Shown one piece after another: positions 31,375 to 61,285 of a stretch of 62,535 nt of DNA. Position 1 is the first letter of the stretch; each line of letters begins with the position of its first letter. Origin of the DNA: Acidobacteriota bacterium (lineage in GTDB: Bacteria; Acidobacteriota; Terriglobia; 2-12-FULL-54-10); NCBI GenBank assembly GCA_009691245.1, contig SHUM01000014.1, positions 1 to 62,535 of the forward strand. Direction: 5' to 3'. The position numbers and the translations under genes were made by a program. The notes beneath the pieces are model-generated. The model saw only the letters and a list, made by a program, of their open reading frames with translations. It was not told where the DNA came from and did no database searches.

Positions 31375-32775
31375 CTATACGCCTTCGAGCAAGTCCAACT
31401 TACCCGTGCTATCCCCAAGATGGTCCATGGGGATACCCATCTTATCGAGCATCGCCAGAAACAAATTCGTGGCCGGAGTGTCCTGCGGGAATCGCAGGTG
31501 CCGCCCGCCACGCAATTTATCCGCGCCCGGCCGACCTGCTCCGCCGCCCAGTAGCAGGATCGGCAGATTGTTGTGAACATGCAGATTCCCGTCGCTCAAC
31601 GCCCCGCCATACACAATCATGGAGTGATCGAGCAGAGTTCCATCGCCATCCGGCGTAGCCTTGAGCTTGCCGATGAAATACGCCAGACACTTCACGTGCA
31701 GCAGGTCAATCTGCTGGACTTTGGCGATCTTCACCGGATCATACTGATGATGCGACAGCGAGTGATAGGCCTCCGCGTAGCCGAGTTCCTTGTAGCTGCG
31801 CGTGTTCTGTTCGCGACCCATCATGAAGGTGATCATGCGCGTCATGTCCGTCTGCCAGGCCAGCACCTGCAGATCAAACATCAGCTTCACGTGCTCGCTG
31901 AATACCGATGGCACGCCGGCGGGACGCTCGAAGCTGGGCAACTCGCGCGACGATTGTTGCTCAGCCACTGCGATGCGCCGCTCGATGTCGCGCACCGATT
32001 CCAGATACTCACTCAGCTTAGCGCGGTCCGTTGGTCCCAGTCCCGGCAGCAGGCGACGCACATCATCGGCGACCAGGTCCAGAATGCTGCGCTGCTTTTC
32101 AAGCTGCGCGCGACGCTCGGTAGAATCCGTGGTGGCCGCGTCGCCGAACAGCCGCTCGAAGACGCGCCGCGGGCGATTCTCCATCGGCACGGGGGTCGTC
32201 GCCGTGCGCCAGCTCAACGTATTCGAGTAAGCGCAGCTATAGCCGCTGTCGCAGGTGCCGATCACGTCGGTGGAATCGACGGCGACTTCCAGCGACGCGA
32301 GCTGTGTCTGGTTGCCCATGTGCCGCGCAACAATTTGGTCGACGGAGATTCCCGCGCGCAGGTCCGCGCCTTCGGTCTTGTGCGGATGCACGCCTGTCAG
32401 GAAGACCGCGCTGGCGCGCGCGTGCTCGCCGGCTCCTTCGCCTTCAATGGCCTTGCCGTTGTTGTGCGCCAGTCCGGTCAGCACCTGGAGCTGATCGCGG
32501 TAGGGAGCCAGCGGCGTCAGCGCGGAGGTGATCTCGAACGACGCGCCCTCTGTCTTCGGAGTCCAGGCATCCATGATGACGCCGTTCGGCACGTAGACAA
32601 ACCCCAGCCGTTGCGCCGCCGGACGCTCCGCGGCGCGGGCCAAGGCGGGCACCATCGAGTCCAACAAAGGCAGGGCGATGGATGCCCCCACTCCGCGCAG
32701 GAAGGTGCGGCGCGGAATGGATTTCTTAAAGAGGATATTGGCGCGTGCCTTCGATTTAGTCATGGATTCCCTCAT
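31375..32775 (-). CDS. DUF1552 protein with Tat signal
   Basis: 466 residues. The twin-arginine signal PRRTFLRGVGASIALPLLDS is followed by the DUF1552 body: RLGFVYVPNGVIMDAWTPKT, the HARASAVFLTGVHPHKTEGA region, MENRPRRVFERLFGD, and MIVYGGALSDGNLHVHNNLP. DUF1552 proteins resemble the alkaline-phosphatase/sulfatase-like DUF1501 group and are exported folded, but the reaction is unknown. The start codon overlaps the stop of the DUF1592 gene by 4 bases, so the two are translationally coupled; these families nearly always occur together. Confidence 0.9.
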   Translation of the reverse strand: MRESMTKSKARANILFKKSIPRRTFLRGVGASIALPLLDSMVPALARAAERPAAQRLGFVYVPNGVIMDAWTPKTEGASFEITSALTPLAPYRDQLQVLTGLAHNNGKAIEGEGAGEHARASAVFLTGVHPHKTEGADLRAGISVDQIVARHMGNQTQLASLEVAVDSTDVIGTCDSGYSCAYSNTLSWRTATTPVPMENRPRRVFERLFGDAATTDSTERRAQLEKQRSILDLVADDVRRLLPGLGPTDRAKLSEYLESVRDIERRIAVAEQQSSRELPSFERPAGVPSVFSEHVKLMFDLQVLAWQTDMTRMITFMMGREQNTRSYKELGYAEAYHSLSHHQYDPVKIAKVQQIDLLHVKCLAYFIGKLKATPDGDGTLLDHSMIVYGGALSDGNLHVHNNLPILLLGGGAGRPGADKLRGGRHLRFPQDTPATNLFLAMLDKMGIPMDHLGDSTGKLDLLEGV

Positions 32776-35225
32776 GGATTTAATGGCCTCCGCATCTGGA
32801 AGGGCGTACTCTCAACAATTCCCAAAATGATATCCGACCACTTGAGTTTTTCCGGCGCGGCGCGGCGCAGAATCTGCCGCACGGTGGGCTGGTCGTAGTA
32901 TTCAACGCCACGGCCCAGAGCGTAGGTGAGCAACTTCGATGTCGCCGTTGTGAGAAACTCCCGCTGGCTGTCCAGCAGCACCCCGCGCAGTCCCGAGGGT
33001 CCCACGAATTTCGTGCCGCCAGGGATAACTCCAGACGCGTCCACCGGAATGTTGTCCGCGCCGCTGGTGGTTCTCCACCGACCGACCGCATCGAAATTTT
33101 CCAGCGCGAACCCGAGTGGGTCCATTCGCTGATGGCAGGTCGCGCAGGCCGGATTGGCGCGATGCCGCTCCATCGCCTGCCGCATGGAAAGTATCTTGCC
33201 CTCCGTGTTGCGATCTTGCAGGGCCGGGACGTTGGGAGGAGGCGGGGGCGGGGGCGCGCCGAGCAGAGTCTCCAGAACCCACTTGCCGCGCAGCACGGGC
33301 GAGGTGCGGTCCGCGTAACTGGTTACGGTGAGAATGCTGCCCTTGCCGAGCAAGCCGTGCCGCTGCGAATCAGCCAGCTCCACGCGCCGAAAGTGACTAC
33401 CGTAAACGTCCGCGATGCCGTAATGCCGCGCCAGCCGCTCGTTCAGGAAAGTATAGTTGGCGTCCAGTAAGTTTAGAATACCGCGGTCCTGACGGATGTT
33501 TTCCGCAACAAACAATTCGGTTTCCTGCTGGAGCGCTGCGCGGAGGTTCTCATCGAAATCAGGAAACTCGCCGAGGTCAGGCTGCACGCTTTTTATGTTG
33601 CGCAGATACAGCCACTGCCCGGCAAAATTCTCAACCAGCGCACGCGCCCGGGCATCGGCCAGCATTCGTTGAACTTGCTTGAGCAACTCGGCCGGCTGAT
33701 GCAATTGCCCACGCTCCGCCGCGCCGAGCAGCTCATCGTCGGGGAGGCTCGACCACAGGAAAAACGACAGCCGCGCCGCCAGTTCCAGATCGCTGATTCT
33801 GAATGCCGCGCTGCTCGCCACACCCGCAGGGTCGCGCTCGATGCGAAACAGAAACTCGGGCGAGACCAATATGCGCGTCAGCGCCATCTCGATCCCGCTC
33901 TCGAAGCGCGCGCCCACGCGGCCCTGGCGAAAGGGGATGAGCAGCGTCTCACGATCCTGGTCGTTGATCGGACGGCGGAAGGCGCGCCGGGCAACGCGGG
34001 AGAGAATGGCCCACGCGCACGTTTCCTCTGCTTCCTTTGCTTCCTTGCCGTCGCAGATCAGCAATCTCTTGGCCACGGAATTGTCCGTGACCGCCGCGGC
34101 GCCCGCGCGCAAATTCACCGGTCCATCGATGACCACGCTGCCGATGCCCGGTTCGAGATCATCGCGATTGGCGATCAGCGGCGGCAACAGCGCTTCGTCC
34201 TCCCAAGTCTCGCGCTGGAAGGATACTCCCACCAGATGAGTCCCGGCGGATACACTCACTTTGACCTGGAAATCCGCGTCGGCGGGTTTCTCCGCGCTGG
34301 CTGGCGCATCCTGATTCGCGGCTGGACTGGTGGGCGCGGTGGGATCGAGCCGCAGAGTGGTGTCGTAGCGCGAGGCGCGTTTGCCCTCTCCGCCCACAGT
34401 GGTCTGTGCAACCCGCGCACCGTTCAGCCAGATGTCCAGGTCATGCGCCTCGGCGATGCCCAGAATGCGCGAGCCTTCATAGGTGGTCTTCAGGCGGACA
34501 TTGATCCAGTAATCACCCGCCACGGGGAAGTAATGGCGAACCGCAATTCCGCCGCGCGATCCGAAGGGCAGGGCCTCGCTGACTCGGTCATTCTGACTGA
34601 GAAAACGAGGAACGTCGTAGATGACCTGCTCGGCGCGTGGCGGGATCGCGCCCATCGCCAGCCGGCTCACCTGACGCGCGGCGGAGAAATAATTTTCGAG
34701 CAACAGCGGCGAGACCGACAGGACATCACCGATATTGTCGAACCCATATCCGGAGTCATCGGCGGGAAGTGAGGAGCGCAGGTCAATAGCGTCCACGTCC
34801 AGATCAAGCAGGTCGCGGACCGAGTTGACGTACTCGGCGCGATTCAGCCGGTGCAACGCAGGCTGGCCGGGATTGAGGGCGGCGGCGGCGGCGCGGTCGA
34901 GCGCCGATTCCAGATAATTCGTCAGTGCTGTGAGGGTGGGAGCAGGCGGGCGCGGCGCGCCCGGCGGCGGCATCTCGCCGCTACGCAATTTGCGTAGCAC
35001 TCGCTCGCCCACATCGGCGTGCGAGGAAACATGATTCCAGTCAACACCCTCCAGCACCAGGCCGGCGGTTTTTAGTCGTTGGTTATGGCAGGAGACGCAA
35101 TATTGATTGACCACCGCAGTCGGCGCGGCCAGCGCGGCGGCATCCTGTGCAATAGCGTTCACCGCGCAGGCGACGGCCATTGCCGAGACAAACAGGATTC
35201 GCGCTGTGATGCGAGAATGTTTCAC
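32772..35225 (-). CDS. DUF1592-family cytochrome c-containing protein
   Basis: 817 residues with a signal peptide (ILFVSAMAVACAVNAIAQ). A c-type haem motif, YCVSCHNQRLKTAG, lies near residue 42. The following order of small domains is characteristic of Planctomycetota/Acidobacteriota surface proteins: DUF1587 (LHRLNRAEYVNSVRDLLDLD), a carbohydrate-binding-like beta region (240-370), DUF1595, DUF1592 (LELAARLSFFLWSSLPDDEL), DUF1588 (ADRTSPVLRGKWVLETLLG, a poly-Pro run and a second haem-like motif CATCHQRMDP), and DUF1585 at the end. It is an exported redox or polysaccharide-degradation protein of unknown function, acting with the DUF1552 and ankyrin proteins downstream. Confidence 0.88.
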   Translation of the reverse strand: MKHSRITARILFVSAMAVACAVNAIAQDAAALAAPTAVVNQYCVSCHNQRLKTAGLVLEGVDWNHVSSHADVGERVLRKLRSGEMPPPGAPRPPAPTLTALTNYLESALDRAAAAALNPGQPALHRLNRAEYVNSVRDLLDLDVDAIDLRSSLPADDSGYGFDNIGDVLSVSPLLLENYFSAARQVSRLAMGAIPPRAEQVIYDVPRFLSQNDRVSEALPFGSRGGIAVRHYFPVAGDYWINVRLKTTYEGSRILGIAEAHDLDIWLNGARVAQTTVGGEGKRASRYDTTLRLDPTAPTSPAANQDAPASAEKPADADFQVKVSVSAGTHLVGVSFQRETWEDEALLPPLIANRDDLEPGIGSVVIDGPVNLRAGAAAVTDNSVAKRLLICDGKEAKEAEETCAWAILSRVARRAFRRPINDQDRETLLIPFRQGRVGARFESGIEMALTRILVSPEFLFRIERDPAGVASSAAFRISDLELAARLSFFLWSSLPDDELLGAAERGQLHQPAELLKQVQRMLADARARALVENFAGQWLYLRNIKSVQPDLGEFPDFDENLRAALQQETELFVAENIRQDRGILNLLDANYTFLNERLARHYGIADVYGSHFRRVELADSQRHGLLGKGSILTVTSYADRTSPVLRGKWVLETLLGAPPPPPPPNVPALQDRNTEGKILSMRQAMERHRANPACATCHQRMDPLGFALENFDAVGRWRTTSGADNIPVDASGVIPGGTKFVGPSGLRGVLLDSQREFLTTATSKLLTYALGRGVEYYDQPTVRQILRRAAPEKLKWSDIILGIVESTPFQMRRPLNP

Positions 35226-35284: not shown

Positions 35285-36097
35285 TCAGAACGCTTCCGGC
35301 ATGTGGTAGATGCGAATCCCGCGGCCGCCGCTCATGATGATTTCCTTCGCCGCCGGATTGATGTCAAACACGCCGCTGCCATCTTCGAGCCGGTAGACCG
35401 GCGCGATGTCGCCGCAGTCGCCGTAATTCCAAACGGCGGTGTAGGCACGCTGGCGTCCAGGATGCCCTTTGGGAACGCGCTGTGCGCCCCCACCAAAGAT
35501 TATCTTCTTCGCCGGGGAATAGAGCAAGGCCTTCGAGAGTGTAAAGCCTTCTCCGCCGCCCAGCCCGGTTTTCGGCCCGCTGATCACGCAGCGCGGCGTT
35601 ACATCGCCTTGATCGGTGCGGTTGAAAATCATGATTCCCTGCGAGGCCACCACGGCCATCAGGTTGTTGACGGGGTCAATGGTCACGCGGCGGGGGAAGC
35701 GCATTCCGGTCTTCGGCCCGTGCAGGATGCGCACCGGGGCAATGTTTCCGTTGCCGCGGCTGGGGAATACCAGGATGGAGTCACTCCCCTCCTGAGTCAC
35801 ATACAACTCACTATTCACAGTGTCAATGGAGACATTGTCCGTATCCATGCTGCCGCCAAACATGGTCCGGGGACCCTGAATCACGCGCAATGGTTTCTCG
35901 TCACCCGAGGCGTTGGCGCGGAATATCAGCAGGGCGTGAGCAAAGGGGTTAGGCACCACGATTTCATCATGCACCGTGTCGATGGCAATTTCATGCGTGG
36001 TGCGCGCCATGTGCGTGTTCTGGCCTTCCATGGTCCGCAGCGGATTCACATTGCCTTTCGCCGAACCGGCGAAGATCGAGATGCGCGGATGACTCAC
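35285..36097 (-). CDS. Beta-propeller protein, downstream half after an in-frame TGA
   Basis: 270 residues in the same frame as 36098-37357, beginning GTG (VSHPRISIFAGSAKG) directly after TGA 36098-36100. It contains five to six further propeller units (EIVVPNPFAHALLIF; ELYVTQEGSDSILVF, RVTIDPVNNLMAVV; GIRIYHMPEAF at the end). It has no signal peptide, no usable ribosome site at the GTG, and starts in the middle of a blade whose first strand (DEILVPN) is in the upstream part. The reading I prefer is that it is made by decoding the TGA, giving one exported protein of about 690 residues. Independent reinitiation at the GTG is the alternative. Confidence 0.7.
   Translation of the reverse strand: MSHPRISIFAGSAKGNVNPLRTMEGQNTHMARTTHEIAIDTVHDEIVVPNPFAHALLIFRANASGDEKPLRVIQGPRTMFGGSMDTDNVSIDTVNSELYVTQEGSDSILVFPSRGNGNIAPVRILHGPKTGMRFPRRVTIDPVNNLMAVVASQGIMIFNRTDQGDVTPRCVISGPKTGLGGGEGFTLSKALLYSPAKKIIFGGGAQRVPKGHPGRQRAYTAVWNYGDCGDIAPVYRLEDGSGVFDINPAAKEIIMSGGRGIRIYHMPEAF
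36057..36073 (-). promoter_or_regulatory. Candidate SECIS-like hairpin 24 nt after the TGA (copy 1)
   Basis: On the minus strand UUCGCC-GGUUC-GGCGAA forms a perfect 6-bp stem with a 5-base loop that starts GGU. It begins 24 bases after the UGA at 36098-36100. Bacterial selenocysteine insertion elements are hairpins about 15-40 bases past the UGA with a G in the first two loop positions, which this satisfies. The paralogous gene has a hairpin with the same stem at the same distance. Confidence 0.45.
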
Positions 36098-37357
36098 TCA
36101 GTTGGGAACGAGTATCTCGTCGCGCTTGGGGTTATACGCCACCGTACCCGGCGAGCCGAACCCGGAGCGGGGAGAGCCCTTCGGCGCGCTGCGAATCACA
36201 CGCGACGGCACGACATTACCGGCAGCCGTGCGCGGATAGACCGTCGCGGTATGGTTGTCCCAGTTGGACACCCAAAGTTCATTGCGCTTTTGATCGAGCA
36301 CCACACTCGTTGGCCCGTCAATCTCCGTCCTGTCTCCGCCCAGTGTGCGCGCGGGCGCCACGTCGCCGTTCGCCTCCACGGGAAAGAACAATACGCGGTC
36401 ATCACCGGCGTTGGCCACCATGAGTTGCCGGGTCTTGGCGTCGTAGAAAATTCCCATCGGCAGATTCAAACCCGTCTTCGCACCCTGAATCACGCGCAGC
36501 GGCGCGATGTCGCCATTGGCTTTTCTGTTATAGACACTTATGGACGGAGGCAGGAATTTGCCTGACGATGGCCCCAGATTGCGGACCAGATCAAAGTAGG
36601 ATTTGCGCTTCCCCTTCAGCTCCGGCGGCACCGAGCCTTCCTGCAGAAACACTTCATTCGGCTGCGTCTCGTGCCAGTGGCCATGATTGACGACGTAGAC
36701 TTCGTTGCGGGCTTCGTCCACGTAGATGCCATGCGGATCGGCAAGTTGCGTCTTCGGCCCCTGGATGAAGCGCACCGCGTCGTCTTCCATCTGCGCCATG
36801 CGGTTATAGACGGCCACGCGGTTGACGTGCTCGATGGTGACAAACAGTTCATCGACCGGCCGGTCCAGAAAAATTCCCCACGCGCCATGGGAAGTAGGCA
36901 GCCAACGTATGGCTTCCATGTCACCATTGCCGTTGAGTGGAAACACGCCCAACTCACTGTTGCCCTCGCCACTCACTTTATAAATCTCGCCGAACTCGGG
37001 CGAAATAGCGATGCCGCAGATGTCGCCCAGATCGGCCTTGGGCCCGGCGATCATGCGCAGCGGCTCACTGACGCGCTCGGAGCGTTCCGCGGGAAAATCG
37101 GCTCGATAGGCCTCGATGCTCTGGCCCTTGCGTTCATTGTCGTTGCTGAGGAACAGCTCGCCCTTCTCTTCATCAATGGCCATGCCGCTGAAATTGGAGT
37201 AAGGGTCTTCTTCGATCACGCGCACGGGATCGCGTTTGATGATGGTGGTGCGCCGCCCAGTGTTTGCAGCAGCGGGGCGCGGCGGATTCTGCGCCAGACT
37301 CACGCCCGCCGCGACTGCGATCACGCAATATAGAATTAGTTGGGATTTACTGGACAC
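36098..37357 (-). CDS. Secreted NHL-type beta-propeller protein, upstream half ending at an in-frame TGA
   Basis: 419 residues from the GTG at 37357, chosen because AAGGAGG lies 5 bases upstream and the signal peptide (SKSQLILYCVIAVAAGVSLA) follows immediately. Repeated units of about 45 residues show the pattern x-G-D-x-x-P-x-R-x-I-x-G-x-K-T and E-L-x-V-x-N-x-x-x-x-x-x-x-V-F, for example NGDIAPLRVIQGAKTGLNLP and NELWVSNWDNHTATVYP. These are NHL/SMP-30-like blades. The frame ends RDEILVPN-TGA, in the middle of a blade whose remaining strands are encoded in frame downstream. A second gene at 59039-61285 has the same structure. It sits ahead of the DUF1592 operon and behind an Oar-like receptor. 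Reaction unknown. Confidence 0.8.
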   Translation of the reverse strand: MSSKSQLILYCVIAVAAGVSLAQNPPRPAAANTGRRTTIIKRDPVRVIEEDPYSNFSGMAIDEEKGELFLSNDNERKGQSIEAYRADFPAERSERVSEPLRMIAGPKADLGDICGIAISPEFGEIYKVSGEGNSELGVFPLNGNGDMEAIRWLPTSHGAWGIFLDRPVDELFVTIEHVNRVAVYNRMAQMEDDAVRFIQGPKTQLADPHGIYVDEARNEVYVVNHGHWHETQPNEVFLQEGSVPPELKGKRKSYFDLVRNLGPSSGKFLPPSISVYNRKANGDIAPLRVIQGAKTGLNLPMGIFYDAKTRQLMVANAGDDRVLFFPVEANGDVAPARTLGGDRTEIDGPTSVVLDQKRNELWVSNWDNHTATVYPRTAAGNVVPSRVIRSAPKGSPRSGFGSPGTVAYNPKRDEILVPN

Positions 37358-37558
37358 CAGAACCTCCTTGGGGGCCCTCCCCCTCAGGGCGAGGGGAAAG
37401 AGAGTCACCCGGTGCTGCTTTGACTTTACAACTTGCCGCGGTTACACATCCAGCGAAAAGCCCGCGCCATCCCGAGATACGGGATGACACGGCTACCAAT
37501 GCGGTAATGTCTTTGCTCTGGTAGCCGCGTCAAACTGTATTTTTGGCGCGGGATTTTC

Positions 37559-40500
37559 CTAAAAGGTATAGCGCAGGTTGAACTGCATCTGGCGCGCCGA
37601 GCTGGACAGCTCCTGAATGACTCCCGCGTTGCCGGCATGGTTCAGGCGCGCGGTATTGCCACCCTGCGCGGGTTGCGCGCCGCTGAAGACGGTGCGATTC
37701 GGCAGGCCGAAATTGGTGCGGTTCAGCAGATTGAACCACTCCATGCGATAGGTGAGCGTGTGGCCTTCCAGGATGCGGAAGTTTTTCACCAGCGAGAAAT
37801 TTACGTTGGCGCGGCCCGGGCCAATCAGCGTGTTGCGCCCCAGGCCGCCGTAGAAACCGGCGAGTGGATCGCTGAACGCGCAGGGATCGAAGTAGCGAGT
37901 CTCCGGTCCCAGCTTTTCTCCGGCCTTTATAACCGGAACCACGGCGCCTGCCGCAACCGCGGCGACGCCGCAACTGCCTGTGACTCCCGCGATGGGATTG
38001 TTGCTGTCGCCCGCCTGATTCGGACGATCCGGCGCGCCGGAGTTTCCGTCATTCGAGCGGTTCGATCCGATCAGCACGGTAAACGGATTGCCCGTCGCGG
38101 CGGAGAAGATGCCGCTGGCCTCCCAGCCATTCAGAATTGTTGAGGCCACGCCGCTCATCGGGAACGTAGGCACTCGATACGTTCCGTTGATGGCCAGCGC
38201 GTGGCGCTGATGCTGCGAGGCGAGACTGCGGTCGCCGCCGCGATCAAACGGGATGAGCGTAGAGTCCGGCGTGTTGGCGGTCAGCGCGGCCTGCCACGCG
38301 CCGGAGTCGGTGATGGCGCTCGAATAGGTGTAGCTGGCCTGCAGGTTGAGGTTCTGCGACTGGCGCTTGTTGAACTGGACTTGCAGAGAATCGTAATTCT
38401 GTTGCGCGTCGGTCTGCACCACGCGGATGGCGCCGAACGCCGGGTTGTAGCGCGGCGCGGCGGCCAGCGGCGAATATTGTGGACGACCGTCGGCGCCGAA
38501 AGTCGGGATGCGCGTGTTCAAGCTGGTTTGGCGCACCCAGTGCACGCCGCGCGATCCGCCGTAGCCCACGGCCAGCACCATGCCCGGGCCAACCTGCTGC
38601 TCGGCGGTCAGGTTGAATTGATAGACAGTCGGCGTCTGCGGCTTCGGTCCCCACACGCGCAGGTCAATCGAGCCCGCCGGCGGATTGGTGATGTTGGCCT
38701 TGGGGAAGCCCGTGATCGGCGTTGGGTTGTTGATGCTCAAATTGGTGATCAGCCCGGAGCGCGAGTAGAGCGAATAGAATCTGCCGCTCGAAAATTGATT
38801 GTGATAGATGCCTGCGCCGCCGCGCAGCACGGTCTTGCCCGACTCGCCGAACGGCGTCCATGCGAAACCGAAGCGTGGAGCGAAGTTCTTCAGCGAAGGA
38901 TTCTCGAGCCATCCCGGCCCGCGGGTAACCGCGGTGTCGCGCAGAAGATCCACAATGGTGGCCTGATTGCCGTGAACTTCCGTGGGAACGGAAACAAATT
39001 CATAGCGCAATCCGAAATTGAAGTTGAGATGATTGGTGGCTTTCACGTCATCCTGCAGATACACCGCGGTCATCCACTGGCGCAGCCCCTGCACGGGGTC
39101 CGAATCAAGCGATTGCGCCTCGAACCGTGTCGGAATCCCTTGCAGGAACCCGGTGACGCTGCCAAAGGTGTATCGGCTCTGCGAAGAGTAAACGTAATTG
39201 TTGTTCTGCTGGCGCTGCAGGTTGAAGCCCATGCGCAGCGAGTGCGCGCCGGTGTGGTAATCCACCGCATCGGAAATCTCCCAGACATTCTGGATGAATC
39301 CCGAGGGCGCGGCGTTCTGATGGCCCAAATTGCCGATGGTGGCGTCCTGTCCGCCGGTAACCGTAAAGGAGAGGTTCCAATCACGGCCGGGCACAAAGGC
39401 CAGCGCGGCGTCGTCCGGCTGCGCGGCATTATTCAGAAGCGGGTTGGTGCGGTTGAATGACACGCGGAAGACATTCAGAAAATTGCTGGTGGCAATGGTC
39501 TTCCACTCGAGCGTGGAGAACGTATTACGCGAGGTGAGCAACGCCAGATAGGGATCAAACGTTGCCACGCTGCTGGCTTCGGTGTCGTCAATTGTCATCC
39601 GGCCGAACAGGTAATGCTTGTTGGAAAACTGATGGTCGATGCGCAGACTGCCGTAGTCCTCGCGCGTGGGGTTCGATCCCGCCGAGGAATACTCCGCCGT
39701 GCCGTCGCCATAGTCACGCCCGTTCGGCAAGGGATAGTGATCCAGATACGGACGGACCGAGGGCGCCACGCCGACGTTTGCGGCTCCCACCAGCCCGCGA
39801 TGCGCGCCTTCGCTGGGCACAGTGCGGAAATTCAGGCTCTGCAGTCGTTCGCGCAATCCTTCGTAAGCGGTGAAGAAAAATGTGCGGTCGCGGATCACCG
39901 GTCCGCCCACCGTGCCGCCAAATTGATTGCGCCGAAATGGCGGAAGGTCTTTGCCTGCCTTGTTGTCCAGATAACTGGGCGAGTCGAAGATATCGTTGCG
40001 CAGAAATTCAAAGGCGCTGCCGTGGAAGACATTCGCTCCGGAGCGCGTAACGGCGCTGATGACGCCGCCGGCGGTGCGGCCGTATTCGGCGGAGTAGTTG
40101 CGCGTGTATACGCGGAACTCGAGGATGGCATCCACGCCGAGGTTGTTGCCCGCCACGCTCCCCGGCGTGTTGCCGGCGTGGTCGCGGATGTCGGTGCCGT
40201 CGAGCAGAAACGAGACGAAGTCGCCCGGCGTGCCGCCCACCGACATGCGCCCGCCCGCGCCGGTTACGACTTTAGCGATGGTGCCGGTGCTGGAATTTGT
40301 GTATTGCACGACGCCGGGTTGCAGATAAGCCAGCGCATCATAGCTGCGCCCATTGAGCGGCAGCTCGCGAATCGCCTTGTCGCCCACCAGGCCGGAAAGT
40401 TCCGCGGTGGTAGTCTGCACTAGCGGCACTTCGGCGATCACGTTCACGCTTTCTGTAACTTGACCGACTTCGAGCGCCAGATCGACCACGATCTCACTGC

Positions 40501-40801
40501 CTACGCTGAGCGCGACATTTTCGCGCACGGCCGTGCGGAAACCCGCCGCGCCAGCCTGCACGGAGTATGCACCAGGCTCGAGCGCCGCCAGACGGAAGCG
40601 TCCCGCGCTATCGGCCACTGAGCTGCGCACGCGGCCCGTCTCCTGCTGCTTCACCTGCACGCCGGCGCCGGGCAGCACCGCGCCGGATGAATCGCGCACC
40701 GTGCCGGAGATGGTGCCCAGCGGCCCTTGCGCCAATAACGGCGCCACGCCCACGCACAGCACCAGCGTTAGCACGCCAACATGTTGCCTGAAATACAGCA
40801 T
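37559..40801 (-). CDS. Oar-like TonB-dependent receptor with carboxypeptidase-regulatory domain
   Basis: 1080 residues. A signal peptide (VLTLVLCVGVAPLLAQ), the regulatory Ig-like domain GTISGTVRDSSGAVLPGAGV, a plug-like region with ELPLNGRSYDALAYLQPGVV and a long barrel ending in QFNLRYTF are visible. It is the first gene of a minus-strand series that continues with the split beta-propeller, DUF1592, DUF1552 and ankyrin genes. This suggests a shared substrate-capture function at the cell surface, although a 201-base gap before the propeller gene allows a separate promoter. The ligand is unknown. Confidence 0.9.
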   Translation of the reverse strand: MLYFRQHVGVLTLVLCVGVAPLLAQGPLGTISGTVRDSSGAVLPGAGVQVKQQETGRVRSSVADSAGRFRLAALEPGAYSVQAGAAGFRTAVRENVALSVGSEIVVDLALEVGQVTESVNVIAEVPLVQTTTAELSGLVGDKAIRELPLNGRSYDALAYLQPGVVQYTNSSTGTIAKVVTGAGGRMSVGGTPGDFVSFLLDGTDIRDHAGNTPGSVAGNNLGVDAILEFRVYTRNYSAEYGRTAGGVISAVTRSGANVFHGSAFEFLRNDIFDSPSYLDNKAGKDLPPFRRNQFGGTVGGPVIRDRTFFFTAYEGLRERLQSLNFRTVPSEGAHRGLVGAANVGVAPSVRPYLDHYPLPNGRDYGDGTAEYSSAGSNPTREDYGSLRIDHQFSNKHYLFGRMTIDDTEASSVATFDPYLALLTSRNTFSTLEWKTIATSNFLNVFRVSFNRTNPLLNNAAQPDDAALAFVPGRDWNLSFTVTGGQDATIGNLGHQNAAPSGFIQNVWEISDAVDYHTGAHSLRMGFNLQRQQNNNYVYSSQSRYTFGSVTGFLQGIPTRFEAQSLDSDPVQGLRQWMTAVYLQDDVKATNHLNFNFGLRYEFVSVPTEVHGNQATIVDLLRDTAVTRGPGWLENPSLKNFAPRFGFAWTPFGESGKTVLRGGAGIYHNQFSSGRFYSLYSRSGLITNLSINNPTPITGFPKANITNPPAGSIDLRVWGPKPQTPTVYQFNLTAEQQVGPGMVLAVGYGGSRGVHWVRQTSLNTRIPTFGADGRPQYSPLAAAPRYNPAFGAIRVVQTDAQQNYDSLQVQFNKRQSQNLNLQASYTYSSAITDSGAWQAALTANTPDSTLIPFDRGGDRSLASQHQRHALAINGTYRVPTFPMSGVASTILNGWEASGIFSAATGNPFTVLIGSNRSNDGNSGAPDRPNQAGDSNNPIAGVTGSCGVAAVAAGAVVPVIKAGEKLGPETRYFDPCAFSDPLAGFYGGLGRNTLIGPGRANVNFSLVKNFRILEGHTLTYRMEWFNLLNRTNFGLPNRTVFSGAQPAQGGNTARLNHAGNAGVIQELSSSARQMQFNLRYTF

Positions 40802-49756: not shown

Positions 49757-49958
49757 TTGAAGCCCTCTCTGAGCATCAAACATCCACCCACCCGGCGCGG
49801 ACACTGCATTTGTTAATTACACCAGACATATCATCTACTAATGACAATCTGCACAATCAGCTTGACTTAGGTACCCAACGCGAGTAAAAAAGTCTCACCA
49901 CTTTGCTATCGATCAAATTGTCCGAGCCTTAAAGATGTATCTTCAGGAGGTCCACATC

Positions 49959-52900
49959 ATGCGAACCGCAACGGCCACATTTGTGAGTGCGCTCATGTTG
50001 TTTTGGGTATGTTTGGCGGAAGCTCAACTTACCACCGGAACCATCAGCGGATCGGCCACCGATCCCAGTGGAGCCCTGGTGCCCGGCGCCAACGTCACGG
50101 TGAAGAATCTGGAGACTGGCATCTCCCGCAGCACCGTAACCGGAGGCAGTGGCCGCTATGAAGTTCCCAATCTCCCGGTGGGAAATTATGAAGTAAGCGC
50201 GGAGATGAACGGATTCAAGAAAACCATTCGCAGCGGAATCGAGCTGACCGTGGGTCGCACAGCGGTGGTGGATATGGCCCTGCAGGTGGGCGAAGTCACG
50301 CAAGCGGTAACCGTAACTGACGAAGTATCGCTGGTGGAAACCGCGTCGGCCACCGTATCCAGTTTGGTGGATGAGAAGAAGGTCGCCGACCTGCCGCTCA
50401 ACAACCGCGATCTGACGCAACTGGTCTTCCTGCAACCCGGAGTGCTGCAAGTGCCTAGGGAGCAGGGGAATATTGGTTATCGCAGCGGCATGGGAGCCAC
50501 CTTCTCGGTGGGTGGCGCGCGCGGCAACCAGAACACCTTTTTGCTGGATGGCATGTCCAACTCCGACCCGTCAGGAAACGCGGCGGGCGCCGCCCAGTCT
50601 TATATCGGCGCCGAGACGGTGAAGGAATTTCAGATCATCATCAACAATTATTCCGCCGAATACCAAAGTTTGCCCGGCGCCATTGTCAGCGCCGTAACCA
50701 AGTCGGGGACCAACACACTGCACGGCTCGATCTTTGAATATGCGCGCAATGACAACTTCGATGCCACCAAGTGGGACAACAAGATTGTTCCTTTGGCCGC
50801 CGGACAGAAATCCGTCAAGAATGAGTTCAAGCGGAATCAGTTTGGCGGAGCGATCGGCGGGCCCATTGTCAGGGACCACACTTTTTACTTCGCCAGCTAT
50901 GAAGGGTTGCGCGAACGCCAGGCGGCCAGCGACACCGCTTTTGTGCCGACCGTTGCCGCCCGGCAGGGGATATTGCCGATCACCACTTCACTGACGGCGG
51001 CCAATTGCACGGCTTCAAGCGGCGTGGTGGACCTGGCCAACGCAGTCTGCGCGCTGCCCGTGGCGGCATCGGTCCGGGCGCATCTGGCGCTATGGCCCGT
51101 TCCTGGAGTGGGGAACACCATGGGCAATTCCGATAACGGGCGCGTTGAAATTTTCGGCGTGCAGCGCGCGCCGGTCAATGACGACTACGTGAACGGGAAA
51201 ATCGATCACCAGTTTGCGGGGCAGAGAGCCGGATTCATCTCCGGGACTTTCAGCTTTGATGACGCCAACCGCGACATCCTGCGCATGTTGGGCGACTTGG
51301 CGAACCGCGGCACGCTATCCAGAAAGTATGTTCTCGCCTTCAAGCACACTAGCGTGCTGACTCCCGCGACCATCAATGAATTTGGCTTTGGATTCAATCG
51401 CACCAATATCATTGGGGAAATTCCCCTGGATGGCGATTCGGACATCGCCGGGCTGGCCTTCCTCCCCGGCGCGAAGCGGCTCGGGCAGTTGAGCGTCGGG
51501 AACATCGCCAGCCTCGGTTACTCCAACAGCGAAGCGCCCACCTTGGAACGAACGATTTCCCTCAAGGACGGATTGTCGCTCAGCCGCGGCAACCATTCCT
51601 TCCGCACCGGGGTCGAACTCCAACTGATTCGCGACGAGGACAACAGTTGTCCTCCGGGATGCTACGGCAACTATAACTTTCAGGATCTCCGCCGCTTCAT
51701 TACCGGCGTGGTGCGCCGCTATGATGCGCTGCTGCCAACGGCAGCGGGATTTCCGGGCTTTAAGATGAAGCAGTCGCTTTTCGGGGCGTACTTCCAGGAC
51801 GATTACCGGATCATGAATTCGCTCACGCTGAATCTAGGGATGCGTTATGAGTTTGTTACCATTCCCAAAGAGGTCAATGGTAATCTCCGCATCATGAAAC
51901 GATTTGAGGATCCGGCGCTGGTGCCCGGCCCGTTCTTTGCGAGCAATCCCACGACCAAGAGTTTCAGCCCACGATTCGGGTTTGCCTACGCTCCCGGTTC
52001 GCGCAAGACCTCCATCCGCGGCGGCGCGGGAATCTTTTACGATCACCCGATGCTCTATGAGACCCGCACTAATCTTGGCGAGATGCCGCCGTTCCGCTCG
52101 GTCGGTCAAGTGAGCATTGACAATCCCGGCACGCCGGCCATCCCGTTTCCCAACGGCTACGGCGCCATCACCTCGCCGAACGTGACGCTGACGACGAACC
52201 TGCGCACCGCGCAATGGAATATCGATACAACCTACATCTACCGCTGGAACCTGACGCTACAACGCGAGATCATGGGCGACTGGCTGGTCTCGGCGGGCTA
52301 CACCGGTTCACGCGCCGTGCATCTGTGGAACCAGTACGTGCCCAACCTGAACAAGTGGATCGGGTGGCCCAATCAGCCGACCGGCGCGAAGTACTTCCCA
52401 GCGACGAATGAGGCCGGCTTCGGCGGTCGTATTCAACCGAACTTCGCGCAGATTCGCTGGCAGGCTTCCAATGGCAGCAGCTACCATCACGGTCTGGCCT
52501 TGAGCGGTCAACGGCGCCTCCGCAACGGCCTGCAATTCCAGATCTCCTACAACTTCGCCAAGACCATCGATCAAGGCACCGACGTTACCGGCGGAGAACT
52601 GGGAACCAATCAGCGGACTCTCTACATGTGGGACACGCACCTGCTGAAGGCGCTTTCCTCGCAGGATGTCCGGCACGCCTTTACGGCCAACTATTCCTAC
52701 GAGCTGCCCCTGGCAAGAGGAAGAACAGGCATCGCAGGAGCCATTGCCAAAGGGTGGCAGTTGAACGGCATCATCACTCTGACCTCCGGCTATCCGCTCA
52801 CCATCGTGGACTCCAACTCCGCTCAATTGACGCGCATGGCGGAAAACGGCGGCTTGGCCGTGAATATGATTCCCAATGGAGACAGCAATCCCACCGTGGG

Positions 52901-53291
52901 GACCACGGCCGGATGCGGCACGGGCACGAGCGCCGTGACGGGTGGACAGACTCTGGGCGCGGCTCACAGAAGCGGCGGCATTCTCTATTACGACCCCTGC
53001 CAGTTTGAAGCTTCGACGCTCGGCTACTACGGCACTCTGGGACGCAACACGTTGATCACTCCCGGCCTGGCCTCAACTGATTTTTCATTGTTCAAGAACT
53101 TCGATCTTTCCGAGGGGCGGCGCTTCCAATTCCGGGCTGAACTGTTCAACGTGTTGAATCGCGTGAACCTTTCAATTCCCGATACAACTCCGCTGGATGC
53201 CAATGGCATCCGGGACTCCGCTGCTGGCCGGATCAACGCCACCCGTGGCTCGGCCCGCCAGATCCAGTTTGCATTGAAGTATATTTTTTAG
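49959..53291 (+). CDS. Oar-like TonB-dependent receptor with carboxypeptidase-regulatory domain
   Basis: 1110 residues from the ATG at 49959, preceded by AGGAGG with 8 bases spacing. The signal peptide is RTATATFVSALMLFWVCLAE, and the regulatory domain has TGTISGSATDPSGALVPGAN. The plug-like region has DLPLNNRDLTQLVFLQPGVL; the barrel ends in QFALKYIF. It begins a plus-strand cluster with two amidohydrolases, a TPR protein and a split beta-propeller protein. This matches the other cluster, where an Oar-like receptor likewise precedes a TGA-split propeller gene. The ligand is unknown. Confidence 0.9.
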   Translation: MRTATATFVSALMLFWVCLAEAQLTTGTISGSATDPSGALVPGANVTVKNLETGISRSTVTGGSGRYEVPNLPVGNYEVSAEMNGFKKTIRSGIELTVGRTAVVDMALQVGEVTQAVTVTDEVSLVETASATVSSLVDEKKVADLPLNNRDLTQLVFLQPGVLQVPREQGNIGYRSGMGATFSVGGARGNQNTFLLDGMSNSDPSGNAAGAAQSYIGAETVKEFQIIINNYSAEYQSLPGAIVSAVTKSGTNTLHGSIFEYARNDNFDATKWDNKIVPLAAGQKSVKNEFKRNQFGGAIGGPIVRDHTFYFASYEGLRERQAASDTAFVPTVAARQGILPITTSLTAANCTASSGVVDLANAVCALPVAASVRAHLALWPVPGVGNTMGNSDNGRVEIFGVQRAPVNDDYVNGKIDHQFAGQRAGFISGTFSFDDANRDILRMLGDLANRGTLSRKYVLAFKHTSVLTPATINEFGFGFNRTNIIGEIPLDGDSDIAGLAFLPGAKRLGQLSVGNIASLGYSNSEAPTLERTISLKDGLSLSRGNHSFRTGVELQLIRDEDNSCPPGCYGNYNFQDLRRFITGVVRRYDALLPTAAGFPGFKMKQSLFGAYFQDDYRIMNSLTLNLGMRYEFVTIPKEVNGNLRIMKRFEDPALVPGPFFASNPTTKSFSPRFGFAYAPGSRKTSIRGGAGIFYDHPMLYETRTNLGEMPPFRSVGQVSIDNPGTPAIPFPNGYGAITSPNVTLTTNLRTAQWNIDTTYIYRWNLTLQREIMGDWLVSAGYTGSRAVHLWNQYVPNLNKWIGWPNQPTGAKYFPATNEAGFGGRIQPNFAQIRWQASNGSSYHHGLALSGQRRLRNGLQFQISYNFAKTIDQGTDVTGGELGTNQRTLYMWDTHLLKALSSQDVRHAFTANYSYELPLARGRTGIAGAIAKGWQLNGIITLTSGYPLTIVDSNSAQLTRMAENGGLAVNMIPNGDSNPTVGTTAGCGTGTSAVTGGQTLGAAHRSGGILYYDPCQFEASTLGYYGTLGRNTLITPGLASTDFSLFKNFDLSEGRRFQFRAELFNVLNRVNLSIPDTTPLDANGIRDSAAGRINATRGSARQIQFALKYIF

Positions 53292-59038: not shown

Positions 59039-60484
59039 ATGCAGCTGGGAGGCCCGATGCTTCATCATTCGCGTTTCAGTCCCGGATACGCTCGCATTGC
59101 TGGAGTGTGCTTCGTGGTGTTCGTCGCTGGCTGGATATTGTTCGCCGGCAGAGATGGATGGAGGGAAGGGAGCCTCGGCTCTCAGGTTGCTGCGCGCAAA
59201 CCCCGCGGACAAGCCCAGCTCGTTTCGATTCAGCCGCTCCCGGAGATGAGCGGGGCCATCTGCGACTTGGCGCCAGCCGCGGCTTCGACCTCGCTGCGAA
59301 CCGCGATGCAGGAAGCACGGCAGACTGCTTCTCCGGATGCGAGTGAGCAGTTGGAGATTCAGAAGCGGCCTCCTTTGCGGGTGATCCGCGATCCTTATTC
59401 CGCGTTCAGCTCCGTGGCCGTGGACCCCATACGCGATGAGGTGATCTTCACCGACGAGAATCTCTTCCAGTTGGTGGTCTATGATCGCTTGGCCAACACG
59501 CCTGCGTCGGCCAAGATGACCGAACCCAAGAGGATCATCGGCGGATTGAATACCAAGATCGAGTTCAATTGCCACGTCTACATCGATCCGAAAACCGGTG
59601 ACCTGTACACCATCAGCCACGATTCGGACGGCATGCCGATGACTGTTTTCAACCGGCAGGCCAAGGGCGATGTGCCGCCGACCCGGGAGCTTGACGTGCC
59701 CAAGGGCACCTACGGAATTGCGGTGGACGAAGTGGCCGAGGAAATGTTTTTTGCCATCGAGCATGATTCGGCCGTCTCAGTCTACAGGAAATATGCGGAG
59801 AAGGATGAAGCCCCGATTCGCCTGATTCAAGGCGACAGGACATTGCTGGGCGACGCTCACGGAATCGCTCTCGACACCAGGAAGCAATTGATGTTTGTCA
59901 GCAACTACGGATACTCATCGAGCCGCGCCGCCGCGCCGCCGGGGGGAGCGGGGAGACGGCGGAGGAGCGAGGAGAAACCGAACTGGCCGCTGCAACGCAG
60001 CGTCGCGATTCCCGGCACGGGCAAAATCCTTCAGCCTTCCATCAATGTCTATCCCATCAAGGCGCATGGAGACATCCCGCCCCTGCGGATCATTCAGGGA
60101 CCGAAAACACAAATCAACATGCCGTCGCACTTGTTCATGGATGAGGGGAACAACGAACTCTTTGTAGCCAACGATATGGGCAACTCTATTCTGGTGTTCG
60201 ATGCCTCCGCCAGCGGAGACATAGCCCCCAAGCGCGTGCTGAAGGGGCCCAAGACGATGATCCAGAACCCCACCGGGGTGTTTGTGGACTTGAAGAACGA
60301 TGAGCTTTGGGTGGCCAACTTCGGTTCCCGCGCGGCCACCGTCTTCAAGCGAATGGCGGCGGGAGATACTGCTCCGCTGCGCATCATCCGCAACGGCCCC
60401 CTCGATGCTCCCGGCCTGATGATCGGCAATCCGGGTGCGGTGGGATATGACACCAAACGCGAAGAGATTCTGGTTCCTAACTGA
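59039..60484 (+). CDS. Secreted NHL-type beta-propeller protein, upstream half ending at an in-frame TGA (copy 2)
   Basis: 481 residues with an N-terminal membrane/signal segment (RIAGVCFVVFVAGWILFAGR). Blades of about 45 residues show the same pattern as the 36098-37357 protein, for example HGDIPPLRIIQGPKTQINMP and ELFVANDMGNSILVFDASAS. A basic, Pro-rich insert (PPGGAGRRRRSEEKPNWP) replaces a loop. The frame ends KREEILVPN-TGA, and the blade's remaining strands continue downstream in frame. It begins 3 bases after the TPR gene. The start could also be the ATG at 59057, which follows GGGAGG. Function is unknown; a surface lactonase or redox enzyme is possible. Confidence 0.8.
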   Translation: MQLGGPMLHHSRFSPGYARIAGVCFVVFVAGWILFAGRDGWREGSLGSQVAARKPRGQAQLVSIQPLPEMSGAICDLAPAAASTSLRTAMQEARQTASPDASEQLEIQKRPPLRVIRDPYSAFSSVAVDPIRDEVIFTDENLFQLVVYDRLANTPASAKMTEPKRIIGGLNTKIEFNCHVYIDPKTGDLYTISHDSDGMPMTVFNRQAKGDVPPTRELDVPKGTYGIAVDEVAEEMFFAIEHDSAVSVYRKYAEKDEAPIRLIQGDRTLLGDAHGIALDTRKQLMFVSNYGYSSSRAAAPPGGAGRRRRSEEKPNWPLQRSVAIPGTGKILQPSINVYPIKAHGDIPPLRIIQGPKTQINMPSHLFMDEGNNELFVANDMGNSILVFDASASGDIAPKRVLKGPKTMIQNPTGVFVDLKNDELWVANFGSRAATVFKRMAAGDTAPLRIIRNGPLDAPGLMIGNPGAVGYDTKREEILVPN

Positions 60485-61285
60485 GTGATGCATCCGCAGA
60501 TTGCGGTCTTCGCCAGGCTGGCGAATGGCGCGCCCAAACCGGTGCGGCAGATTCATGGACAGAAAACAATGTTATCGCGGACGGTCCACGCAATTGCCTA
60601 TGATGAGATTCACGATGAGATCGTGGTGCCCAATCAATTCGCGCAGGCCATTCTGACATTTCGCGGAGGAGCGAATGGGGAAGAGCCGCCGCTGCGCATC
60701 ATTAACGGTTCGCTGACGCAATTAGAGGCCCCGGACCGGCTGGGAATTGATCCGGTGAATAACGAAATACTTGTTCCGGAAAGTGGGCGCGTGCTGGTCT
60801 ATCCCCGCGAGGCGAACGGCAACTCGGCCCCCAGCCGCATCCTGGAAACCGAAGGCGGCATGGGCGGATCGGTTGCGGTGGACTCGCTCAATAATCTGCT
60901 GGTCACTGCTGGATCGTCAATCAAGATATTCAGCCGCTCAGGCAAAGGGAAAGTCCAGCCACTACGAATCATCGGCGGACCCAAAACGCGCGATATGATC
61001 AATGGCAGCAAGAATATCGTTCTGCATCCGGCACGTGGATGGATCGTGGTGGCTAACCAGGGCGTCAACAGCCATCCCCCGATTGACTACTCCGAGGGAT
61101 CATTCGTCGGCGTTTGGAGCATTCACGATAGCGGCGACGTTCCGCCCAGGTGGACCATCGGCGGCCCCCATGGCGCACTGCGCCAGGCGCGTGGCGTAGC
61201 GCTGGATCTCAAGAATAAGTCTGTCATTGTCTCAGACAAATATCTGAATGCAGCTTTAACGTATTACTTTCCGGAAATGTTTTGA
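60485..61285 (+). CDS. Beta-propeller protein, downstream half after an in-frame TGA (copy 2)
   Basis: 266 residues in the same frame as 59039-60484, starting GTG (VMHPQIAVFARLANG) right after TGA 60482-60484. Further blades are seen in EIVVPNQFAQAILTF, LEAPDRLGIDPVNNEILVPE and VALDLKNKSVIVSDKYL. No signal peptide, no ribosome site at correct spacing, and the frame begins mid-blade, exactly as in the other copy. A joint protein of about 748 residues with one residue at the TGA is the likely product. Reinitiation is the alternative, and would leave an unexported half-propeller. Confidence 0.7.
   Translation: MMHPQIAVFARLANGAPKPVRQIHGQKTMLSRTVHAIAYDEIHDEIVVPNQFAQAILTFRGGANGEEPPLRIINGSLTQLEAPDRLGIDPVNNEILVPESGRVLVYPREANGNSAPSRILETEGGMGGSVAVDSLNNLLVTAGSSIKIFSRSGKGKVQPLRIIGGPKTRDMINGSKNIVLHPARGWIVVANQGVNSHPPIDYSEGSFVGVWSIHDSGDVPPRWTIGGPHGALRQARGVALDLKNKSVIVSDKYLNAALTYYFPEMF
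60509..60525 (+). promoter_or_regulatory. Candidate SECIS-like hairpin 24 nt after the TGA (copy 2)
   Basis: UUCGCC-AGGCU-GGCGAA forms a perfect 6-bp stem with a 5-base loop. The stem is identical to that of the first copy (36057-36073), the distance from the UGA is the same, and the loop differs but keeps a G in its first two positions. These are the constraints described for bacterial selenocysteine insertion elements. Confidence 0.45.

What the first reader, a model, noticed from the sequence alone, without database searches (positions are those of the whole stretch)
36050..37357. A secreted beta-propeller gene contains an in-frame TGA in the middle of a blade
Seen directly: the frame from 37357 ends RDEILVPN-TGA at 36098-36100, and the same frame continues as V-SHPRISIFAG to 35285 without another stop. 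The upstream half ends after one strand of a blade and the downstream half begins with the next strand of that blade, so the parts are not independent domains. Only the upstream half has a signal peptide, so a separate downstream half could not be exported. Family knowledge: NHL propeller units have strands E-I-x-V-P-N and I-x-V-F in the same polypeptide. Inference: the TGA is decoded, most likely as selenocysteine.
Basis: partly seen in the sequence, partly recalled or inferred. Interest (0 to 1): 0.93.

Follow-up and report, generated by a model that had tools for sequence, protein, structure and literature searches.

The report
Amplified family of selenocysteine-containing propeller proteins
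The in-frame stop codon is almost certainly read as selenocysteine, and the gene belongs to an apparently undescribed family of secreted propeller proteins that some soil and groundwater Acidobacteriota carry in up to 39 copies per genome, every one with the same recoded codon.

Summary
The frame from 37357 meets TGA at 36098-36100 and stays open to 35288. The same genome has 21 copies of this gene family, two in this window (the other at 59039-61285); related Acidobacteriota genomes have up to 39. Every one of about 115 distinct copies has TGA at exactly this site. The next codon need not be a start codon (GTA, GTC, GTT, ACG or AAT in about a dozen) and no ribosome-binding site precedes it, so re-initiation fails. 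Thirty-one nucleotides after the TGA comes the loop of a 7-bp hairpin that meets all four criteria of the bacterial SECIS model, is perfect in 74 of 94 copies (at most 7 in 500 codon-preserving reshuffles) and shows compensatory changes. The genome has selA, selB, selD and tRNA-Sec(UCA); its SelD is itself a Sec protein with the same GGU-loop hairpin. TGA also ends 43 of 91 family genes, so it is not globally reassigned. No copy has a sense codon there. A May 2026 inventory of 119 prokaryotic selenoprotein families and NCBIfam (June 2026) contain nothing like it. Biochemical function is unknown; a redox or nucleophilic role outside the cytoplasm is inferred.

The parts
35285..37357 (-). Selenoprotein propeller gene, copy 1 (690 codons including Sec420; final stop TGA 35285-35287)
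   Evidence: conserved downstream half
37363..37367 (-). Shine-Dalgarno GGAGG, 5 nt before GTG start at 37357
   Evidence: Sequence
36098..36100 (-). In-frame TGA read as selenocysteine (residue 420)
   Evidence: conserved in every copy
36057..36073 (-). SECIS apical hairpin UUCGCCG-GUU-CGGCGAA, loop 31 nt after the UGA
   Evidence: covariance-model hit 36050-36100, E 5e-12
36076..36088 (-). Proximal small hairpin of the family (5 bp); imperfect in this copy
59039..61285 (+). Second selenoprotein propeller gene in the window, copy 2 (748 codons including Sec482)
60482..60484 (+). In-frame TGA (Sec482) of copy 2
60509..60525 (+). SECIS apical hairpin of copy 2, UUCGCCA-GGC-UGGCGAA
60494..60506 (+). 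Proximal hairpin of copy 2, CCGCA-GAU-UGCGG
37559..40801 (-). Upstream neighbour: outer-membrane barrel with carboxypeptidase-regulatory-like domain (TonB-receptor type); context only
32772..35225 (-). Downstream neighbour: DUF1592/DUF1588/DUF1587 (PSD/PSCyt) protein; context only

Best explanation
The gene encodes a secreted double beta-propeller selenoprotein. During translation the UGA at 36098-36100 is read as selenocysteine by Sec-tRNA(UCA) delivered by SelB, which is recruited by a bacterial SECIS hairpin whose loop lies 31 nt downstream; the last UGA, which lacks a SECIS, ends the protein. It is one member of an amplified, Sec-only family of exported propellers in Acidobacteriota (21 copies in this genome, up to 39 found in a relative). 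Shown by sequence evidence: conserved UGA, SECIS, Sec apparatus, selection on both halves. Inferred: export, and a function in which Sec420, in the loop after strand B of blade 7, acts as a redox or nucleophilic residue.
For: TGA at the same codon in all copies read: 94 distinct in nine genomes, 28 of 29 GTDB loci, the other being a decayed fragment, and all strong matches spanning the site in 247 phylum and 399 class genomes. SECIS: 7-bp stem perfect in 74/94 against a null mean of 2.4 and maximum 7; loop Arg codon AGG in 82/84 against 6 expected; six pairs with both-side changes, 34 cells against 10.2 shuffled, covariation score 0.176 against 0.103; in L075 Ala/Ala became Asp/Ser and in L086 Pro/Gly, keeping the stem. 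All four bSECIS criteria met: loop 3 nt, stem 7 bp, G first, spacing 31 nt, energy -9.9 and -10.9 kcal/mol. Model R1 finds 21 sites in this genome, equal to the 21 copies found by protein search, and none in 10 genomes lacking the family. selA, selB, selD and tRNA-Sec UCA present; Sec-SelD uses the hairpin GUCCAAA-GGU-UUUGGAC. Downstream dN 0.15 against upstream 0.19.
Against: No proteomic or 75Se evidence. No Cys homologue, though nearly all selenoproteins have one (PMC13188914). The Sec trait is also common in relatives without the family (26 of 32 have selA), so co-occurrence adds little. G261 lacked selA and G039 lacked a clear tRNA-Sec hit; both may be assembly gaps. The folding energy of the whole 66-nt stretch is no lower than that of shuffled sequence; the case rests on covariation and codon choice.
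Confidence: 0.95

Rival explanations
1. The TGA is a real stop, and the downstream half is made separately by termination-reinitiation at the adjacent codon (TGA-GTG), giving a two-chain propeller.
For: GTG follows TGA in about 103 of 115 copies; ORF callers see a GTG-started downstream ORF.
Against: About a dozen copies have GTA, GTC, GTT, ACG or AAT instead. No Shine-Dalgarno core lies before codon +1 in any of 94 copies. No hydrophobic export segment in 123 downstream halves. It explains neither the exclusive use of TGA over TAA/TAG nor the SECIS hairpin. The GTG preference may reflect context or RNA constraints.
Confidence: 0.02
2. UGA is read by near-cognate suppression or programmed readthrough as Trp or another standard residue, without selenium.
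For: The equivalent loop position in other blades holds various residues (P, A, W, H).
Against: A SECIS meeting all published criteria is conserved under codon-level selection, and the host has the full Sec apparatus with a like hairpin in its Sec-SelD. No copy has TGG or another sense codon, as drift under readthrough would give.
Confidence: 0.02
3. Global reassignment of UGA in this lineage.
For: None specific.
Against: UGA is the terminal stop of 43 of 91 family genes and of 4 of 24 other long window ORFs.
Confidence: 0.003
4. Pseudogene or sequencing error.
For: A single locus seen alone would allow it; one paralogue (C18) does carry an extra TAG and L216 is a decayed fragment.
Against: Same TGA in about 115 copies from independent assemblies; strong purifying selection on both sides.
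Confidence: 0.002

Closest known systems
Bacterial selenoproteins with a bSECIS element (e.g. SelD, FdhA; inventory in PMC13188914)
   Same: In-frame UGA, adjacent SECIS with G-first small loop, SelA/B/C/D in the host; the host's own Sec-SelD has a 7-bp stem with the same GGU loop.
   Different: No propeller family among the 119 listed; no Cys counterpart found; 21-39 paralogues of one family per genome against 57-63 selenoprotein genes of all families in the record genomes; no UxxC/CxxU motif.
NHL-repeat and lactonase-type beta-propellers (Pfam PF01436, PF10282)
   Same: NHL and Lactonase matches above cut-off in the read-through protein; 12 four-stranded blades in the model.
   Different: Only weak repeat-level similarity; the single-propeller relatives without TGA that I read align repeat by repeat to other blades and not over the VPN-U-V blade.
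Selenium-binding protein 1 / methanethiol oxidase (SBP56)
   Same: Also a beta-propeller linked to selenium (own knowledge).
   Different: No SBP56 match; not known to contain genetically encoded Sec (own knowledge).

Membership tests
Bacterial selenoprotein | In-frame UGA inside a frame that stays coding on both sides | tested here: met
Bacterial selenoprotein | bSECIS: 3-9 nt loop, 4-16 bp upper stem, G in first two loop positions, 16-37 nt spacing, MFE at most -7.5 | tested here: met
   3 nt, 7 bp, G first in the aligned loop of all 94 copies, 31 nt, -9.9 and -10.9 kcal/mol (criteria)
Bacterial selenoprotein | Host has selA, selB, selC (UCA) and selD | tested here: met
Bacterial selenoprotein | Hairpin under selection as RNA (covariation, codon choice) | tested here: met
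Bacterial selenoprotein | Cys-containing homologues (usual, not obligatory) | tested here: not met
   None in 41 relatives, 247 phylum and 399 class genomes, 29 GTDB loci, or plasmids
Bacterial selenoprotein | Selenium physically incorporated | not testable with these tools
   Needs 75Se or mass spectrometry
NHL-type beta-propeller | Repeat profile match and propeller fold | tested here: met
   PF01436 28.7 bits, cut-off 20; model; PDB matches are tandem propellers, with TM only about 0.3
Selenium-binding protein SBP56 | SBP56 profile match | tested here: not met
   Absent from the Pfam scan

The most novel reading that the evidence does not exclude
A Sec-only exported propeller family that expanded within single genomes (39 sites in an 83%-complete draft), so that one family could rival the largest known whole selenoproteomes, in soil and groundwater Acidobacteriota. 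Sec would be indispensable here rather than a replacement for Cys, implying a chemistry on the propeller loop face not known from thioredoxin-like selenoproteins.
Probability: 0.6. Interest if true: 0.87.

Novelty: new variant of a known kind. Interest (0 to 1): 0.82.

Why it matters
Methods that look for Sec/Cys pairs or filter candidates by homology to known or Cys proteins would tend to miss a family without Cys relatives, so these genes are probably annotated as two broken pieces. If true, single soil and groundwater bacteria devote tens of genes to one family of exported selenoproteins, which would revise the size and place of bacterial selenium use and raise the question why Sec cannot be replaced by Cys there. 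The SECIS set (over 100 natural variants in one register) is also a good data set for SelB recognition.

Tried and rejected
Re-initiation, global recoding, Trp readthrough and pseudogene were tested and rejected. Co-occurrence of the family with selA is consistent but not discriminating, since most relatives have selA anyway. Thermodynamic z-scores of the 66-nt stretch were uninformative. Alignment A1 was too diverse for a collection scan, so a downstream-half alignment was used. Sense-codon homologues: weak matches in G288, G362, G370, G434, G617 and in Paraburkholderia and Streptomyces plasmids are other propellers; the HMM alignments that I read (the printout was cut off) match other blades and do not cover the Sec blade. 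Gene neighbourhood: outer-membrane barrels, amidohydrolases, molybdopterin oxidoreductase and tandem copies recur, but no fixed operon. Haft and Tolstoy 2025 is not held, and a search for Deng et al. 2026 returned only the review; both were seen only through that review.

Full report
Observation. The minus-strand frame from GTG 37357 (preceded by GGAGG, five bases before the start) runs to TGA 36100-36098 and continues open to TGA 35287-35285. Read through, it is 690 residues. The AlphaFold model from 18 aligned family members is confident (pLDDT 85.6, pTM 0.86) and shows 12 four-stranded blades; by my count the TGA residue, 420, lies in the loop between strand B (414-419) and strand C (425-430) of blade 7.

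The family. A search with the upstream half in 41 related genomes gave dozens of matches in several of them (the match counts there include partial repeats). Reading on past the end of each match showed the same thing every time: TGA at exactly the same codon followed by the homologous second half. In this genome there are 21 copies, all with TGA at that site and one with an additional TAG; two of the 21 lie in this window, the second at 59039-61285. Twenty-nine loci from GTDB genomes, all titled Acidobacteria, Acidobacteriota or Candidatus Sulfopaludibacter MAGs, some from groundwater or soil by their names, behave alike apart from one decayed fragment. In a phylum sample 6 of 247 genomes and in a class sample 25 of 399 had a match (some of the latter weak and to other propellers); every strong match that spans the site has TGA. 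The G269 match stops short of the site and was not resolved.

Not a stop with re-initiation. Codon +1 is usually GTG but is GTA, GTC or GTT in ten copies, and ACG (L189) or AAT (L204) in two. None of 94 copies has a Shine-Dalgarno core before it. Hydrophobic N-terminal segments occur upstream (97 of 106) and never at the start of the downstream half (0 of 123) (that count includes a few chance matches of the pattern). Between copy 1 and its closest relative L002, dN is 0.19 upstream and 0.15 downstream with dS saturated.

The SECIS. Counting T of TGA as 1, bases 28-34 pair with 38-44 around a loop at 35-37, typically UUCGCCA-GGU-UGGCGAA. The stem is perfect in 74 of 94 copies; when codons are redrawn by the family's own usage with the protein kept, the mean is 2.4 and the maximum of 500 trials 7. 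The loop Arg is AGG in 82 of 84 cases although AGG is 7 percent of Arg codons. On 63 distinct sequences 92.9 percent of cells pair, six pairs change on both sides, and covariation exceeds all shuffles and all slid registers. In L075 the residues became Asp and Ser, and in L086 Pro and Gly, so that the RNA pair was kept while the protein changed. The published bacterial SECIS model (PMC13188914) asks for a 3-9 nt loop, 4-16 bp stem, a G in the first two loop positions, 16-37 nt spacing and at most -7.5 kcal/mol; the two window copies give 3, 7, yes, 31 and -9.9 / -10.9. A second small hairpin (13-17 with 21-25) is also conserved but imperfect in copy 1. A covariance model of the 51-nt element finds 21 sites in this genome, 39 in G006, 21 in G005, 17 in G036 and G261, 14 in G001 and G023, 10 in G030 and fewer in five others, and none in 10 genomes without the family (the listing of individual sites is truncated).

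The machinery. This genome has tRNA-Sec with anticodon UCA (C16, 73 bits), selB (C2), selA (C54) and selD (C9). Its SelD carries the usual TGA (AAG-U-ASK) followed by GUCCAAA-GGU-UUUGGAC, the same stem length and loop as in the propellers at a shorter spacing. UGA also terminates 43 of 91 family genes, so its meaning depends on the SECIS. Among 14 family-bearing genomes 13 have selA whole or in part, but 26 of 32 relatives without the family have it too, so this is consistency, not proof.

Function. Only inference is possible. In the model Sec420 sits in a B-C loop; by general propeller topology such loops share a face with the D-A loops, where invariant His209 and His455 lie (I had no coordinates to measure distances). 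A surface site with Sec and His fits a redox or nucleophilic enzyme, or metal binding, outside the cytoplasm. A Cys at position 114 is common but not invariant, so no fixed Sec-Cys pair is evident. Neighbours vary.

Novelty. The May 2026 inventory lists 119 prokaryotic selenoprotein families and subfamilies, none a propeller, and gives 57-63 genes as the largest selenoproteomes. NCBIfam of June 2026 has no model over cut-off. Literature searches of the held library found no prior report; two relevant papers could not be read, so an earlier mention cannot be excluded. The mechanism is canonical; the family, its Sec-only character and its amplification are what is new.

Noticed in passing
59039-61285 (+): A second full copy of the same selenoprotein family in the window, with its own TGA (60482-60484) and SECIS.
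   Followed up: yes
L217 (G000:C9:53900-55200): The genome's SelD is itself a selenoprotein with a 7-bp GGU-loop SECIS closer to the UGA than in the propellers.
   Followed up: yes
G000:C18:2-1984: One paralogue has an additional in-frame TAG: a decaying copy in the same genome.
   Followed up: partly
G003:C197 and C17, C183: A relative (G003) has two selB and two selA genes over cut-off; whether two Sec systems or a mixed MAG was not examined.
   Followed up: no
37559-40801 (-) and 49935-53291 (+): Two large outer-membrane barrels with carboxypeptidase-regulatory-like domains; similar genes adjoin some other copies of the propeller family (L191, L192, L196).
   Followed up: partly
G012:C56:5613-6755: A selA match in a relative has an internal TGA; not examined.
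   Followed up: no
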